Shown here in pieces: positions 5,027 through 64,000 of a stretch of DNA of 64,000 bases (position 1 is its first letter; every line of letters begins with the position of its first letter). The position numbers were made by a program, and so were the translations under genes. A model generated the notes under the pieces. The model ran no database searches. It had not been told where the DNA came from and was given only the letters and a program-made list of their open reading frames with translations. This DNA comes from Gemmatimonadota bacterium. GTDB taxonomy: Bacteria > JAAXHH01. The stretch is taken from assembly GCA_009835325.1 (NCBI GenBank), contig VXWP01000049.1:1-64000 (forward strand), written 5' to 3'.

Positions 5027-6256
5027 TCAGTCCTTCCGCAACCCGCCCAACCTCCACAGCACACTGACGACCCCCAGGCTGGCGATCCCGCCGCAAATCG
5101 TGAGGGCCAGGGGCGCGCCCGCCACCGCGGCCAGCCCGCCGACGAGCAGGCGGCCGGGCGGACCGCCGCCGATGGCGAGGACGAGTAGGCCCATGACCCG
5201 GGGCCGCATGGCGTCGCTGGACGTGCGGAGGACGATGGAGGACTGCATGATCCCGAACCCGGTCTGCCCGACGCCCACCAGGATCAGCATCAGGAGCGAA
5301 AGCGGGAAGGACGTCGACAGGGCGAAGACCAGCGTGGCCAGGGCGTTGACCAGGGAACTGATGGAGAAAACCAGGCCGTCGCGGTAGTGCTGGCCCAGCC
5401 GGTCGATGAGGGCGATGCCGAGGATGGATCCGACGCCGGTGCCCGCGCCGAGGATGCCCAGTTCCAGGGGGCCGAGGAAGAGGACGTCCCGTACGAAGAC
5501 GGGCAGCAGGACCTGGTAGGAGAAGGCGAAGGCGTTCATGATGAAGGTGATGATCAGCACGCCCGAGATCCTGGGATGCCGGCGCGAATACCGGTAGCCG
5601 AGGAGCAGGTCCTTCCAGGGACCGAGCCGTCCCTTCTTCCGGCCTTTCCGGTCCGTAGCGGCGGAGAGCCGGACGATCACGACGATCTGGACGACCTGCA
5701 GGAGGAAGAGAGCCAGGAAGCCGCCCTTCGTCCCGGCGAACTCGAGCAGGATGCCGCTCATGAGCGGCCCGATCAGCCGGGAGATGTTCTGGGGCACCGT
5801 CTCCAGCACCATGGCGTCCGTCGTCCGGTCCTTGCCCACCAGGTCCGGGATGAGCGCCCGGCGGCAGGACCAGTCGTAGGCGCTGCCCAGGCCGATCAGG
5901 ACGGATCCGATGACGACGTGCCAGAAGGCCAGGTGGCCGAGCAGGGCGAGGATCCAGAAGAGGCCGTTGACGAAGCAGTTGATGAACTGGGCGTTGACGA
6001 TCAGCCAGCGGTAGCTCACGTACCGGACCACCGTGCTGAAGAAGGGGCCGAAGAGCATGAACGGCGCCATGCGGCAGAAGCTGACCAGCGCCACCATGCC
6101 GGCCGAGTCGGTCAGTTCCAGCACGACCCAGCCAACGATCAGTTCATCCATCCAGCGCGTCTGCCACCAGATGCTGCTGGAAATCCAGAGGTTACGGAAA
6201 TCGGGGATGGAAAGCAGGCGGGCCGCTTTCCAGCGTGAGCCGAGCCGGACGAACAT
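5027..6256 (-). CDS. Major facilitator superfamily transporter (MFS_3/EntS-like)
   Basis: A 409-residue integral membrane protein with about 12 hydrophobic segments in two halves, split by a cytoplasmic loop rich in Lys/Arg (ATDRKGRKKGRLGPWKD). The start RLLSIPDFRNLWISSSIWW and the motif-A-like loop region resemble the MFS_3 group that includes enterobactin exporter EntS and many uncharacterised proton-driven exporters. It is likely an inner-membrane exporter, with substrate unknown. It is convergent with the enolase gene, with tandem repeats between them, and divergent from the PIG-L gene. The start ATG gives MFVRLGSRWKAARLL, a plausible positive N-terminus. Confidence 0.85.
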   Translation of the reverse strand: MFVRLGSRWKAARLLSIPDFRNLWISSSIWWQTRWMDELIVGWVVLELTDSAGMVALVSFCRMAPFMLFGPFFSTVVRYVSYRWLIVNAQFINCFVNGLFWILALLGHLAFWHVVIGSVLIGLGSAYDWSCRRALIPDLVGKDRTTDAMVLETVPQNISRLIGPLMSGILLEFAGTKGGFLALFLLQVVQIVVIVRLSAATDRKGRKKGRLGPWKDLLLGYRYSRRHPRISGVLIITFIMNAFAFSYQVLLPVFVRDVLFLGPLELGILGAGTGVGSILGIALIDRLGQHYRDGLVFSISSLVNALATLVFALSTSFPLSLLMLILVGVGQTGFGIMQSSIVLRTSSDAMRPRVMGLLVLAIGGGPPGRLLVGGLAAVAGAPLALTICGGIASLGVVSVLWRLGGLRKD

Positions 6257-58967: not shown

Positions 58968-60599
58968 ATGCGGTTATCCCCTGACTTTTCTATCACCTGG
59001 CTGTGTGGTGCAGGCCTCCTGTTTTTGCTCGCCGCGGCGACGGTGGCGTTCTCGCAGGGGACGGCGCACGCACAGGGCACGGCGTTCGCGCAGGGCACGC
59101 GGGGCAACGTGACCGGCAGCGCGGGGAGTTCCGGTGCGGAAGAGGCCGAGGAAGAGGATCCCGTGCAGCGCGTGCTACGGGAGCGCGTCGATGACTATGG
59201 CCAGACGGTGGGCGTCGTCGCCGGGATCATCCGCGGCATCAACCGGTACGTCTATGCCCACGGCACGCTCAACCGCGGCACGATCCGGCGCGTGAGCGGC
59301 ATGACGGTCTTCGAGATCGGCCAGTTGAGCAGCCTGTACACGACGGCCATGCTGTCCCTCATGGTCCAGCGGGGCGACGTGAACCTGACCGATGAGATGT
59401 CCGCCTATCTCCCGGAGACGGTGACCGTTCCAACCACGCGCGCAGGAAACCCCATCCTGATCGAGCACCTCGCCACCCACACCTCGGGACTGCCCCGCCT
59501 GCCGGACAACCTGGTTTCGGATGAACCGGAGTATCCGCTGAAAGGGTACTCGGTGGAATTGATGTACGCATTCCTCGACCGGTACGCCGAGGCGCAGCGT
59601 GACGGGTCCGAGTTCCCGTTTGATTTCGAAGAACCGGACGGCAAAGATCCGGATCGAGAAGATCTCCTGGATCGGGAAGGCGAAGACCGTTCGGATACAC
59701 CAGGCCGTGACGAACCGGAAGACCGCTACGTCTACTCCGATCTCGGCATGGGTCTCCTGGGACACGTGCTCGAACGGGCCGCCGGTGAAAACTATGATGT
59801 CTTGTTACGGGAGTTGCTGGGCGATCCCCTCAAGCTGGCCAACACGGCCAATGCGTCTACGCCGTCCATGCGGACCTACCTGGCGACCGGGCACGACGAC
59901 GCCCGCCGGCCCGTGCCCGCCTGGTCCGACACGACCCTCATAGGCGGCACGGGTCTGCGGTCCAATCTCCTGGACATGATGACCCTGGTGTCGGCCAGCA
60001 TGGGGATCATCTACGCCCTGCCCGAGGACTTCACCGAAGACGACTCGACCCGCTACCACGCGTCCTTCGACAGCCTCATCGTGGCCCGGAAGCCCGCGGA
60101 CGAGGAGGATGTCCAGACCGCGCTGGGGTGGAAGGTGCGCCAGGACACGCGGGGCCGAGACATCCACTGGCTTACCGGCCGGACCAACGGGTTCTACGCC
60201 TTCGCCGCCTTCCTCAAGCAATGGCGCAAGGGCGTCGTGGTCCTGTCCAACAGCTCGGCCAGCGTCGAGGACATCGGGTTCCACCTGCTGAGCGCCCGGA
60301 ACCCCCTGGCGCCACCCCCGAGGAAGGTCGTGCAAATGACCGAGGCCGCCTACGTGGCCTGCACGGGCACCTACGCCTTCTCCACCGAATTCACCGTGGA
60401 CATCACCTACAGCGACGGCAAGCTCTACGGCCAGCCTCCCGGCCAGCCCCGGAGCGAACTCGTCCTCGAATCGTCTGGGGATTTCTACCTGGAAGAAGAG
60501 GATGCCAGGATCACCTTCGTCCCGGACGAAGCGGGAAACGTCGACCACTTCCTCTTTCTCCAGGACGGACAGACTCACCGGGCGGAACGGGTGAGGTAG
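58968..60599 (+). CDS. Beta-lactamase-fold (serine hydrolase family) protein lacking the SxxK motif
   Basis: A 543-residue exported protein. Signal SITWLCGAGLLFLLAAATVA is followed by a triplicated cleavage region. The fold is that of class C beta-lactamase-like serine hydrolases: LIEHLATHTSGLPRLP, RYVYSDLGMGLLGHVLERA, TTLIGGTGLRSNLLDMMTL and a late TGRTNGFYAFAAFL. The nucleophile motif SxxK should fall in FEIGQLSSLYTTAML, where it reads Q119-L-S-S122, with neither Ser nor Lys at the right places. The usual YxN is Y256-S-D258, and the HxG motif is LTG. So it is probably a binding or scaffold pseudoenzyme of the periplasm. An acidic insert (about residues 220–252) is unusual. Confidence 0.82.
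   Translation: MRLSPDFSITWLCGAGLLFLLAAATVAFSQGTAHAQGTAFAQGTRGNVTGSAGSSGAEEAEEEDPVQRVLRERVDDYGQTVGVVAGIIRGINRYVYAHGTLNRGTIRRVSGMTVFEIGQLSSLYTTAMLSLMVQRGDVNLTDEMSAYLPETVTVPTTRAGNPILIEHLATHTSGLPRLPDNLVSDEPEYPLKGYSVELMYAFLDRYAEAQRDGSEFPFDFEEPDGKDPDREDLLDREGEDRSDTPGRDEPEDRYVYSDLGMGLLGHVLERAAGENYDVLLRELLGDPLKLANTANASTPSMRTYLATGHDDARRPVPAWSDTTLIGGTGLRSNLLDMMTLVSASMGIIYALPEDFTEDDSTRYHASFDSLIVARKPADEEDVQTALGWKVRQDTRGRDIHWLTGRTNGFYAFAAFLKQWRKGVVVLSNSSASVEDIGFHLLSARNPLAPPPRKVVQMTEAAYVACTGTYAFSTEFTVDITYSDGKLYGQPPGQPRSELVLESSGDFYLEEEDARITFVPDEAGNVDHFLFLQDGQTHRAERVR
59050..59103 (+). repeat. Three in-frame 18-bp units at the signal-peptide cleavage site
   Basis: Units at 59050–59067, 59068–59085 and 59086–59103 code for FSQGTA, HAQGTA and FAQGTR. 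Two of them create an AxA-Q signal-peptidase site (AHA-Q and AFA-Q), so cleavage sites are multiplied. Confidence 0.85.
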
Positions 60600-60701
60600 G
60601 GGATCGGATTATAACACGAGATAGAAATTTAGTATCAGTCTAATTCTTTGGTATACAGACTCAAAGTAATGGTACGTATTCTTGGGATTCGAGGTTAACA
60701 A

Positions 60702-61955
60702 ATGATCAACCACGTTGGTTCTGCCACTTTCTGGGATTACGCCGAAGACAAGGAAGATCCTATACACAGGATACACAGTTACCCGGCGAAGTTTCCCGCA
60801 TTCATCACGACTAAAGCACTACAATATGCTCAAGCAAAGGGTGTAGAGGTCCATACGGTCGCAGATGTTTTCTGCGGATGTGGGACAACTGCGGTTGAAG
60901 CAAAGAAAAAAGGAATTAACTTTTGGGGATGCGACATCAATCCTGTGGCTACCTTGATCGCACAGGTTAAATCTAGGGATTATTGCGATTACATGTTGGC
61001 AAGATACTTCACCAAAATCAAAGACATGTTTTGTACAGTGTGCGCTGATGAGAATGATTATAAACGTGTCAATGACAGGATAAGGTACTGGTTCGAGGAT
61101 CAGAACATTGATGATCTGCTTAGATTACAGAAAGCAATCAGGCTTGTAATTCCTAGTAACAGTAAGTATAGGAAGTTCTTCCTTTGCGCGTTCTCGAACA
61201 TCTTGAAATCGACTTCTAGATGGCTAACGAAATCAATTAAGGCACAAGTGGATCCGAACAAATCGCGACATGACGTCATGGATGCATTTGAATGTCAAAT
61301 TCATATGATGCAAAAAGCAAACATAAGCAGTATGGAGGCGTACACACGAGGGAAAACCCATAAAACGTCGATTGTAACAAGAGACTTTCTATCCACGCGC
61401 CTGCAGAAACCCGTAGCAGATTTAATCGTCACGAGTCCGCCCTATGTTGTCTCCTACAATTACGCTGATTTACACCAGTTGTCCGCGATGTGGCTTGGAT
61501 ATGCTACAGACTATCGGGACTTAAGGAAAAACATGATCGGTAATCAGTACGGCGTCAAACCGCCACAGGACGCTGATTTACACAATCTTTGCAGTTCCAG
61601 TGTAGAAACGTATCGCGATTTATTGCAGGTAGACCGTGGGAAAGCAGCTTCGGTCATTCGGTATTTCATGGATTTACAGAAAACTACCAACCAATGCTGG
61701 CATTTGTTAAACCAGGAAGGGCTAGCGGTGTTTGTGATTGGAAACACGGAATACAAAGGTGTAACGATAGACAATGCTGGATACTTAAGAGATTGTATGG
61801 TAAATTCACTCTTCGTGGATATTGAGGTTGTTAAGCGAAAAGTATCGTTGAAGATCATGACTCCATATCGGGATTCCAAGGGTCGTTTTACTAGAGATTC
61901 CTCGGAAAGAAAGGTCTATAACGAAGAGTACGTAGTGATCGGTAAAAAACGATGA
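60702..61955 (+). CDS. DNA methyltransferase, alpha order (N4-C/N6-A type), AT-rich
   Basis: A 417-residue DNA methyltransferase. Motif I is VADVFCGCGTTAVEA (residues 53–65) and motif IV is TSPPYVVSYNYAD (Ser245–Tyr248), with about 180 helical residues between, matching an alpha-class order with an inner target-recognition region. The N-terminal HRIHSYPAKFPAFI is a common feature of restriction-associated N4/N6 enzymes. GAGG at 60691–60694 serves the ATG. The gene starts an abruptly AT-rich segment 100 nt after the beta-lactamase-fold gene; the 60600–60701 spacer has no other gene. It overlaps the ATPase gene by 4 nt (ATGA), so the two proteins are made together. Confidence 0.9.
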   Translation: MINHVGSATFWDYAEDKEDPIHRIHSYPAKFPAFITTKALQYAQAKGVEVHTVADVFCGCGTTAVEAKKKGINFWGCDINPVATLIAQVKSRDYCDYMLARYFTKIKDMFCTVCADENDYKRVNDRIRYWFEDQNIDDLLRLQKAIRLVIPSNSKYRKFFLCAFSNILKSTSRWLTKSIKAQVDPNKSRHDVMDAFECQIHMMQKANISSMEAYTRGKTHKTSIVTRDFLSTRLQKPVADLIVTSPPYVVSYNYADLHQLSAMWLGYATDYRDLRKNMIGNQYGVKPPQDADLHNLCSSSVETYRDLLQVDRGKAASVIRYFMDLQKTTNQCWHLLNQEGLAVFVIGNTEYKGVTIDNAGYLRDCMVNSLFVDIEVVKRKVSLKIMTPYRDSKGRFTRDSSERKVYNEEYVVIGKKR

Positions 61956-64000
61956 AAACCTCAGAACTGCCTATAAGACCTTATGCTAGATTGTTGACTA
62001 TGCTCAGTGAGCAGCTCATTAAAAACGAGCGTATTGCCCTGCTCGAGTTGATTAAGAATTCTTACGATGCTGACGCCAATCTTGTACGAGTCACTTTTGA
62101 CGCATTCAATGACGACATGACGGCTCGTAGCGATTCACGAATTATAATTGAGGACGATGGGCATGGAATGAGTCCAGAAGTCATACGCGAATCATGGATG
62201 AATCCAGCTAATCCTCAGAAATATATCAGAAAGAAAAAAGGAAATAGAAGAACCCTCGGTGGGAAGAGAATCGTTCAGGGTGAGAAGGGAATTGGTCGGT
62301 TTGCGTTGTTGAAACTAGGAAGTCATATTACGGTAACTACTCGGACTGAATGTTCGAGTTTCGAGTCTGTGTTGGTACATGATTTTACAAAATACGATTC
62401 GGAATTTACTGAAGACCAGATCGAGAATAGGGACATTTACCTAGATGAGATTAGGGTGCTTTACTCTGAGATTTCACCTCCCAAGACGATAACGCAACAG
62501 CATGGGACCAAGATAGTTATATCGAAAGTAAAAGGAGTGTGGAGTAAACAGGTCGTATCAAGACTGATAAAAGACCTTTCTGCTCTGACTGATCCAATTT
62601 CCAAAATCGCCAAACATGAGACAGCAACTGATAGTTTCCTAGTAACTGTAGAATGCAATGGTTCCCCCTGGCAAATAGAAGATAAAAACGAGGAAATCCT
62701 TAAAAGGTTAATCGAAGACAAATCCGTATTAAGAATACAAGGTAAGTTTGATTCCGAAATTGGATCTTTCTTTTTGAGTGTTAATGAAGATGAGAACAAG
62801 TACACGGAAATCAAGTTAGATGATTCGCTGATTATTGGTCTTTTAAAAAACAATCAGTATTTGGATAGAGAAATCATCATTGCTCGAGAACTTGAGTGTG
62901 GTAGTTTTGAGTTTCACTTCTATGTTTTTGATTTTTCGCGAGGCATTTCGGGTAAACACGAACTTAATACATCGGAAAAAAGAGTACTCAAGGATTACAG
63001 AATATACCTCTACAGAGACGGTGTTCGAGTTTATCCATATGGCGACCCTGAAGATGATTGGTTGAATATCGATGTTGCGAGGGGGACAGGTAGAGCAGGA
63101 AACTTTTTCAGTAATGACCAGCTTGTGGGCTGGATCGATATAACTCAAGAGCACAATCCGAAGTTGCGTGATAAAACGAACCGCGAAGGTCTAATAGAAG
63201 AAGGAAACGCGGTTAGTGAGTTTTTTGGTTTAATCCAGACCATATTGTCATACATAAAGAGCCATCATTATGCACAGTATCAGGCGAAGAACCGTGATAG
63301 AAACGCTGTGGATATCGTACGTAGCGAGGTTGTTTCAGGTAATTTGGCCACTTTAAGGACAGATCTAGAGAGACAAGGTCTTTCATCAGGGGGCCGAGAG
63401 GTTGCTAGAATTGAAAAGTTATACAAAAGGGAAAAAGACCATCTAATTCAAAGAGCTGAAATGGTTGAGGATCTGGCTGGAGTGGGGCTCTCAGTTGAGA
63501 TGGCCTCTCATGATATCATGCTTCTGATGACCAGGGCAATGGATATTGGGAAGGAACTTTCAAGGCTATCGCGAAAACTTGAAAATGACACGATCCTGCG
63601 ACTTTCGGACATGTTGGTGGGGGTTCTCTCACAAATCGCAGATGGGATAAATGACATTCAGAGTCTATTCAAGTCAGCTAAAAGACGTAGAAAAGCACTT
63701 CGAATTGAACCAATCTTAGACAAGATGTACCAGCTATATCAAGGGTTACTTGAAAAGAGAGGCATTCGATATGAGAAGACCGTAGTTCCTGGCTCGCCCC
63801 TGGTCGCCGACACAAACGAAGGTGTTGCAATGCAGGTCCTGATTAATCTGTTTGACAACGCCTCATACTGGCTTGATACCGTAGATAACAACGACAAGAA
63901 GATTAACGTAACGGTGGACGGAACGAATGGAGATTTAGTCTTTTCAGATAATGGGCCTGGAATAGACGAAGACGATTTACCCTACATTTTCGAACCCTTT
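61952..64000 (+). CDS. Dual GHKL ATPase: Hsp90/MutL-like N-domain plus histidine-kinase-like C-domain (3' end cut)
   Basis: The frame is open for 683 codons to the window edge. An N-terminal GHKL ATPase shows ERIALLELIKNSYDADA (Asn36, Asp39), IIIEDDGHGMS (Asp69) and a lid/G2 loop VQGEKGIGRFALLK, as in Hsp90, MutL and MORC-type proteins. A central region of alternating strands follows, then helices with GVGLSVEMASHDIMLLM (candidate His520) and a second GHKL ATPase: MQVLINLFDNASYWL (Asn636) and LVFSDNGPGIDEDDLPYIFE (G1), a histidine-kinase-type site. It is coupled to the DNA methyltransferase gene. GHKL ATPases are known in restriction islands; whether this one acts as kinase, chaperone-like motor or both is not settled by sequence. 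Confidence 0.88.
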   Translation, partial: MKTSELPIRPYARLLTMLSEQLIKNERIALLELIKNSYDADANLVRVTFDAFNDDMTARSDSRIIIEDDGHGMSPEVIRESWMNPANPQKYIRKKKGNRRTLGGKRIVQGEKGIGRFALLKLGSHITVTTRTECSSFESVLVHDFTKYDSEFTEDQIENRDIYLDEIRVLYSEISPPKTITQQHGTKIVISKVKGVWSKQVVSRLIKDLSALTDPISKIAKHETATDSFLVTVECNGSPWQIEDKNEEILKRLIEDKSVLRIQGKFDSEIGSFFLSVNEDENKYTEIKLDDSLIIGLLKNNQYLDREIIIARELECGSFEFHFYVFDFSRGISGKHELNTSEKRVLKDYRIYLYRDGVRVYPYGDPEDDWLNIDVARGTGRAGNFFSNDQLVGWIDITQEHNPKLRDKTNREGLIEEGNAVSEFFGLIQTILSYIKSHHYAQYQAKNRDRNAVDIVRSEVVSGNLATLRTDLERQGLSSGGREVARIEKLYKREKDHLIQRAEMVEDLAGVGLSVEMASHDIMLLMTRAMDIGKELSRLSRKLENDTILRLSDMLVGVLSQIADGINDIQSLFKSAKRRRKALRIEPILDKMYQLYQGLLEKRGIRYEKTVVPGSPLVADTNEGVAMQVLINLFDNASYWLDTVDNNDKKINVTVDGTNGDLVFSDNGPGIDEDDLPYIFEPF

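What the first reader, a model, noticed from the sequence alone, without database searches (positions are those of the whole stretch)
60600..64000. AT-rich methyltransferase plus dual-GHKL gene pair: candidate new restriction or defence system
Seen: base composition changes abruptly at about 60.6 kb, two genes overlap by 4 nt (ATGA), the first is a DNA methyltransferase with FCGCGTT and TSPPY motifs, the second a large GHKL ATPase. Known: GHKL (MutL/MORC-like) ATPases occur in some restriction–modification islands alongside methylases, nucleases and helicases. Inferred: this is a horizontally acquired modification-plus-effector system whose nuclease or helicase lies past the right edge. The pairing of a methylase with a histidine-kinase-bearing ATPase is not one I can match to a named defence system.
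Basis: partly seen in the sequence, partly recalled or inferred. Interest (0 to 1): 0.82.

Follow-up and report, generated by a model that had tools for sequence, protein, structure and literature searches.

The report
Methylase, sensor-kinase, MazF-like receiver island
A small, mobile three-gene island joins a DNA-marking enzyme to a two-headed sensor kinase and to a receiver protein whose tail is predicted to fold like the bacterial toxin MazF; this suggests an uncharacterised bacterial immune switch that would detect unmarked DNA and respond by signalling rather than by simple DNA cutting.

Summary
The island is small and complete: a 4.95-kb insertion (GC 40-43% against about 62%) behind a serine-hydrolase gene, flanked by 158-bp direct repeats and absent from nine congeners' equivalent sites. 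It holds three genes, not two: an N4/N6-type DNA methylase, a protein with an N-terminal MORC/MutL-like GHKL module plus a complete C-terminal histidine kinase, and, just past the window edge, a receiver-domain protein. No helicase, integrase or recognisable nuclease follows; the chromosome resumes.

The same gene order occurs in all 20 further close-family loci with readable context, including Bacteroidetes, Firmicutes, an Allorhizobium plasmid, the archaeon Methanoperedens and viral contigs. The key kinase and receiver residues are conserved. The receiver protein's C-terminal domain, absent from Pfam, gives a pLDDT-91 model whose 50 best PDB matches are all MazF/PemK toxins. Some distant relatives instead place HNH or metallo-beta-lactamase genes after a short receiver.

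Best explanation: a methylation-gated two-component defence module in which unmodified DNA triggers phosphorylation of a MazF-fold effector. Linkage of such kinases and receivers with restriction systems is published (2021); the MazF-fold output and compact N4/N6 operon appear unreported in the library searched. RNase activity is unproven.

The parts
60442..60599 (+). left 158-bp direct repeat = last 158 bp of the host serine-hydrolase gene including its stop codon; the island begins right after it. The right copy lies outside the window at contig 65393-65550 (L002:5393-5550)
   Evidence: the repeat finder D1, 95% identity; empty sites carry one copy
60702..61955 (+). N4/N6-type DNA methyltransferase, 417 aa (P0001); motif I FCGCGTT at 60870-60890, motif IV TSPPY at 61431-61445, motif I before motif IV
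   Evidence: Pfam N6_N4_Mtase E 1.6e-10; PADLOC MTase_II E 3e-44; motifs conserved in the 19-sequence alignment
61952..64000 (+). dual GHKL / histidine kinase (P0002), 734 aa; the gene runs to contig position 64156. Directly after it, outside the window (contig 64158-65336 = L002:4158-5336), lies the third gene: a 392-aa receiver-domain protein (P0003) with receiver residues 1-158, helical linker and a MazF/PemK-fold domain at about 241-392
   Evidence: ORFs; HATPase_c_3 residues 28-136 and HATPase_c 626-728; P0003:
62033..62359 (+). N-terminal MORC/MutL-like GHKL ATPase domain of P0002 (N box ELIKNSYDAD, G1 EDDGHGM, G2 QGEKGIGRFA)
   Evidence: Pfam; near-invariant motifs; NCBIfam BbrUII/HgiDII restriction-enzyme model E 7e-18 over residues 29-246
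63491..63523 (+). H box SVEMASHDIML of P0002 with predicted phospho-acceptor His520 (His520 and Asp521 invariant)
63827..64000 (+). start of the C-terminal histidine-kinase ATPase domain (residues 626-728; continues outside the window)
   Evidence: Pfam HATPase_c E 1.6e-23; N, G1, F and G2 boxes conserved

Best explanation
A mobile, self-contained three-gene module that links DNA modification to a two-component phosphorelay and a toxin-fold effector. Proposed mechanism: (1) the methylase marks a DNA sequence on the host chromosome; (2) the N-terminal MORC/MutL-like GHKL module of the kinase acts as an ATP-driven clamp that senses DNA lacking the mark, such as phage or plasmid DNA; (3) this lets the C-terminal histidine kinase autophosphorylate at His520; (4) the phosphoryl group passes to Asp69 of the receiver protein; (5) this releases its MazF/PemK-fold C-terminal domain, which arrests the cell or blocks the invader, most simply by cutting RNA. 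Shown here: gene content, mobility, strict three-gene linkage, conserved key residues of both GHKL modules and of the receiver, and a predicted MazF-like fold for the output domain. Inferred: anti-phage role, DNA sensing by the GHKL module, phosphotransfer and effector activity.
For: Operon: methylase-kinase-receiver in the same order and strand in all 18 relatives with both sides readable and in L167 and L169, found by a methylase-only search. Hosts span Cloacimonadota, Bacteroidales, Gastranaerophilales, Firmicutes, Methanoperedens, Omnitrophota, an Allorhizobium plasmid and viral contigs. Catalysis: both ATP-binding modules, H box and receiver D/D/K conserved, most key positions invariant. 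Cognate pair: kinase-receiver distances correlate at r 0.90, methylase-kinase 0.76, methylase-receiver 0.67, Mantel p<0.001. Effector fold: domain-only AlphaFold pLDDT 90.9, pTM 0.83; all 50 listed PDB matches are MazF/PemK toxins, probability 0.98-1.00, TM up to 0.71 by target length; the full-length model separately hit receivers and MazF. Effector exchange: the domain lies in the gene after the kinase in 58 of 105 loci, with N4/N6 or C5 methylases; others have a short receiver plus a separate HNH (one PtuB-like) or metallo-beta-lactamase gene. Restriction link: the same methylase subfamily in L166 sits with a GHKL protein, a C5 methylase and a FokI-domain nuclease. Neighbours include HsdM, HsdS, Mrr, DpdF, recombinases and integrases. 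Mobility.
Against: No experiment shows defence. MazF similarity is fold-level only: Foldseek E about 5e-3 or weaker, profile-profile probability 1.7%, no Pfam or PDB sequence match. The domain's invariant residues (G266, D267, C284, P366, R381, G383) do not evidently correspond to the MazF catalytic Arg and Thr (those known to me from the literature, not tested by superposition); the conserved RP lies after, not before, the second strand. DNA sensing by the GHKL module is an analogy. No matched control was run for the defence-gene neighbourhood. PADLOC has no model for the receiver and only weak generic matches for the kinase.
Confidence: 0.5

Rival explanations
1. A conventional DNA restriction-modification system: the receiver protein's C-terminal domain is a divergent DNA endonuclease, and the GHKL and kinase modules regulate it or loop DNA for cleavage.
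For: The methylase falls in type II methylase models; the GHKL module matches the BbrUII/HgiDII restriction-enzyme model; the L166 relative pairs the methylase with a FokI-domain nuclease; HNH genes stand in for the output domain in distant relatives.
Against: No nuclease motif found in the receiver protein; its predicted fold matches MazF, not a restriction-enzyme fold. A phosphorelay is not needed for direct cleavage.
Confidence: 0.2
2. A selfish addiction module: loss of the methylase leaves the chromosome unmarked, the kinase reports it, and the toxin-fold domain kills the cell. Maintenance of the island, not phage defence, is the selected function.
For: Mobile and patchy, on a plasmid and viral contigs; compact; toxin-like fold.
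Against: Kinase and receiver-effector are more complex than usual addiction modules; neighbouring genes are often defence genes. Not mutually exclusive with defence.
Confidence: 0.15
3. An epigenetic regulator: the methylase and phosphorelay control host or island gene expression, and the output domain binds nucleic acid without cleaving it.
For: Receiver proteins usually control transcription (general knowledge); the MazF catalytic residues are not evidently present; sequence-level MazF homology absent.
Against: No recognised DNA-binding output domain; the output slot is taken by HNH and metallo-beta-lactamase genes in relatives; the island is sporadic within its genus.
Confidence: 0.1

Closest known systems
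Response_reg_2 / HEF_HK two-component-like elements with restriction-modification genes (Bellieny-Rabelo 2021, PMC8011034)
   Same: Soluble kinase with N-terminal HATPase_c_3 and C-terminal HATPase_c next to a receiver-like protein with conserved D/D/T/K, in restriction-modification neighbourhoods
   Different: N4/N6 rather than mostly C5 methylase; HEF_HK not detected and Response_reg_2 barely above cut-off in P0003; strict three-gene operon without a nuclease gene; a MazF-fold output domain is not described there
MORC and paraMORC GHKL ATPases of restriction-modification operons (Iyer 2008, PMC2292703)
   Same: GHKL plus S5-like module encoded beside DNA methylases
   Different: Those operons mostly carry helicases and/or endonucleases; here a histidine kinase is fused and a receiver protein follows instead
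Detocs (two-component anti-phage system; own knowledge, not read here)
   Same: Kinase signals to receiver-effector proteins with exchangeable effectors
   Different: As far as I know no methylase and no MORC-like GHKL sensor; different effectors
MazF/PemK mRNA interferases
   Same: Predicted fold of the output domain
   Different: Joined to a receiver and phosphorelay instead of paired with an antitoxin; no sequence-level match; catalytic residues not evidently conserved
BbrUII/HgiDII restriction enzymes (NF050001) and VcSduA Shedu (PMC12137116)
   Same: N-terminal GHKL module in restriction or defence proteins
   Different: Those are restriction enzymes or nuclease fusions; here the C-terminus is a histidine kinase

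Membership tests
Response_reg_2/HEF_HK two-component-like systems (PMC8011034) | Response_reg_2 (PF19192) domain in the receiver protein | tested here: met
   P0003 29.4 bits against cut-off 27; but only 2 of 19 family members match at E<=0.1
Response_reg_2/HEF_HK two-component-like systems (PMC8011034) | HEF_HK (PF19191) domain in the kinase | tested here: not met
   not listed for P0002 at E<=1 nor for four wider relatives at E<=0.05, although an invariant H box is present
Response_reg_2/HEF_HK two-component-like systems (PMC8011034) | HATPase_c_3 + HATPase_c architecture, adjacent to the receiver gene | tested here: met
Response_reg_2/HEF_HK two-component-like systems (PMC8011034) | association with restriction-modification genes, mainly C5 methylases | tested here: inconclusive
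   a methylase is always present in this branch but of N4/N6 type; C5 in more distant relatives
Two-component signal transduction | H, N, G1, F and G2 boxes in the kinase; acidic residue, phospho-acceptor Asp and Lys in the receiver | tested here: met
Two-component signal transduction | phosphotransfer from kinase to receiver | not testable with these tools
   needs biochemistry
Type II restriction-modification | DNA methylase with catalytic motifs I and IV | tested here: met
Type II restriction-modification | cognate restriction endonuclease | tested here: not met
   no nuclease domain recognised in the three proteins and chromosome genes follow; a cryptic nuclease cannot be excluded
MazF/PemK toxins | MazF/PemK fold | tested here: met
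   in a predicted model only: 50 of 50 listed PDB matches
MazF/PemK toxins | sequence family match (PF02452) | tested here: not met
   hhalign probability 1.7%
MazF/PemK toxins | catalytic Arg/Thr and RNA cleavage | tested here: inconclusive
MORC/paraMORC ATPases | GHKL motifs plus S5 domain in a restriction-modification context | tested here: inconclusive
   GHKL motifs intact and a conserved DKTNREGL block lies where S5 would be; the S5 fold was not modelled

The most novel reading that the evidence does not exclude
A class of immune system in which restriction is replaced by signalling: a MORC-like clamp checks DNA methylation, a histidine kinase reports the failure, and phosphorylation of a receiver switches on a MazF-type RNA-cutting toxin, with the effector exchanged for HNH or metallo-beta-lactamase proteins in related systems.
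Probability: 0.4. Interest if true: 0.88.

Novelty: new variant of a known kind. Interest (0 to 1): 0.68.

Why it matters
Kinase-receiver pairs beside restriction-modification genes were published without a known output. A MazF-like fold gives that output a concrete, testable identity, suggests that self/non-self DNA discrimination can feed a phosphorelay instead of a nuclease, and extends two-component signalling in immunity to a methylation-gated design found in bacteria, an archaeon, a plasmid and viral contigs. It also bears on how MORC-like ATPases, linked to silencing of foreign DNA in eukaryotes, work in prokaryotes.

Tried and rejected
Nuclease, helicase or integrase right of the edge: read the rest of the contig (19 kb with overlap), none. 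Conserved housekeeping locus: rejected by empty sites. Sequence proof of MazF homology: hhalign against 30 PemK proteins gave probability 1.7%, above 60 column shuffles (maximum 0.7%) but not significant; PDB and Pfam profile searches gave nothing. Origin of the 158-bp repeats: both copies are about equally close to congeners, so the direction of transfer could not be read. First scan of viral contigs with the receiver protein alone found nothing, and the receiver alignment was too variable for a scan. Sigma-70 promoter and terminator patterns: fewer than in shuffles, uninformative. Prevalence survey in Bacteroidota not run: the tool needs a genome handle.

Full report
What was checked. The window is contig C49, bases 1-64000, of a 3.68-Mb genome assembly; the contig runs on to 79278.

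Anatomy. The contig beyond the edge holds one more gene of the island and then the chromosome. The island is methylase 60702-61955 (417 aa), kinase 61952-64156 (734 aa) and receiver protein 64158-65336 (392 aa), with a 4-nt overlap and then a 1-nt gap. Its genes have GC 40-43% and GC3 41-48%, against 62-67% and 63-88% for neighbouring genes. It is flanked by a 158-bp direct repeat, 95% identical, equal to the 3' end of the preceding serine-hydrolase gene with its stop codon. Four congeneric chromosomes examined in detail are colinear across the site with one copy of the repeat and no island. In all, ten congeners besides this genome have the host gene end; in nine the DNA match stops within a few bases of the stop codon, and only G007 matches on into the island. 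G007's island shares the left junction; its right end joins host DNA about 2 kb further on. Its methylase DNA is 88-97% identical to ours (flanks 81-93%), while the start of the kinase gene drops to 71-79% and the receiver's C-terminal half to 48% of residues. The island is therefore mosaic, with the signalling half diverging faster. No integrase is present; insertion by homologous recombination of a donor piece carrying the gene's 3' end is an inference.

Proteins. P0001 matches N6_N4_Mtase and type II methylase models, with motif I before motif IV. P0002 has HATPase_c_3 at the N-terminus and HATPase_c at the C-terminus. Its N-terminal part resembles the BbrUII/HgiDII restriction enzymes and its C-terminal part ordinary histidine kinases. 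P0003 matches Response_reg_2 over residues 21-144 just above the curated cut-off.

Relatives. A scan of 84,980 genomes with a three-sequence kinase alignment, and of viral contigs, gave a clear close family at 40-45% identity plus L106 and L073 at 32-33%. In all 18 such loci with both flanks readable (two of them from plasmid and phage records) the order is methylase-kinase-receiver on one strand, overlapping or within 40 nt in all but one (106 nt, where the methylase ORF is short). A methylase-only scan found two more trios (L167, L169) and an instructive exception, L166, where the same methylase subfamily is followed by a GHKL protein without kinase, a C5 methylase and a FokI-cleavage-domain protein. 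In the Allorhizobium plasmid and in L130 a second, related methylase lies upstream on the other strand, as would fit an asymmetric recognition site (inference).

Residue conservation over 19 sequences: kinase GHKL-1 N box, G1 and G2; H box His520-Asp521; kinase N, G1, F and G2 boxes; receiver D15, D69 and K140; output part W190, G266, D267, C284, P366, R381 and G383. Distance matrices of the three proteins correlate, kinase-receiver most strongly.

The output domain. It has no Pfam family and no sequence relative in the PDB. AlphaFold2 on the whole protein (17 sequences) gives a (beta-alpha)5 receiver, a helical linker and a small beta-rich domain, pLDDT 82.6. Foldseek hits include receivers and MazF proteins, and PemK-like proteins among viral models. 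A domain-only model with 36 sequences has pLDDT 90.9 and pTM 0.83, and all 50 listed PDB matches are MazF/PemK toxins, with TM-scores up to 0.71 by target length but E-values only near 0.005-0.05. Sequence-profile comparison is not significant. I take the fold as well supported and the activity as open, because the conserved residues do not evidently match the MazF catalytic pair.

Effector exchange. Of 105 loci with a kinase of the wider family, 58 carry this domain in the next gene, with N4/N6 methylases (28) or C5 methylases (16) nearby by profile or motif. Others have a short receiver protein followed by a separate gene: HNH nuclease (L121, L138, L139, L142 by motif, three of them confirmed by Pfam; L121 resembles Septu PtuB), metallo-beta-lactamase fold (L067, L070, L102, L134, L136, L137 by motif, four tested in Pfam), or unknown proteins. 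A replaceable slot that elsewhere holds nucleases fits an effector, which is the main reason to read the MazF-fold domain as one. The motif-based methylase typing is approximate and no matched control was run.

Setting. Neighbours of 17 close-family loci include type I methylase and specificity subunits, an Mrr-type enzyme, DpdF, ResIII-type proteins, serine recombinases, integrases and a holin. Several loci are viral contigs. Congeners carry further, different members of the kinase family at other sites.

Literature. The linkage of such kinases and receivers to restriction-modification genes is published (PMC8011034), as is the paraMORC concept (PMC2292703). The former states that Response_reg_2 was found in proteins lacking any other known domain. 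A 2026 defence-prediction paper lists HATPase and REC among domains of predicted but unvalidated systems (PMC13092281). Nine full-text searches of the open library found no report of a MazF-fold output; subscription papers and preprints are largely outside it.

Verdict. Not the left end of a larger restriction island but a complete, mobile three-gene signalling module, best read as methylation-gated defence, new in its output domain and compact N4/N6 form, within a known but functionally uncharacterised kind.

Noticed in passing
60442-60599 and contig 65393-65550 (L002:442-599, 5393-5550): 158-bp direct repeats flank the island and reproduce the host gene's 3' end to the stop codon, with no integrase; the insertion mechanism is unexplained.
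   Followed up: partly
L040 (G007:C108) and L041 (G007:C99): A congener has the island at the same left junction but a different right junction, with a near-identical methylase and a receiver C-terminus only 48% identical: mosaic evolution within the island.
   Followed up: partly
L166:8001-14685: Viral contig pairs the same methylase subfamily with a GHKL-only protein (weak MzaB match), a C5 methylase and a FokI-cleavage-domain protein: a different restriction arrangement around the same methylase.
   Followed up: partly
L078:10640-11275 and L155:10885-11535: Proteins after short receivers show HG-type motifs that resemble caspase-like peptidases by eye; no Pfam or PADLOC match.
   Followed up: no
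L100, L104, L108, L110, L116, L117, L119, L120, L123, L163 (second gene after the kinase, about 230-280 aa): A recurrent unnamed protein of about 250 aa follows the receiver gene in another branch of the kinase family; no Pfam match for the one or two tested.
   Followed up: no
L044, L006, L007, L015, L017 (congeners): Other members of the same kinase family, with different methylases or long receiver proteins, lie at other sites in the same genus.
   Followed up: partly
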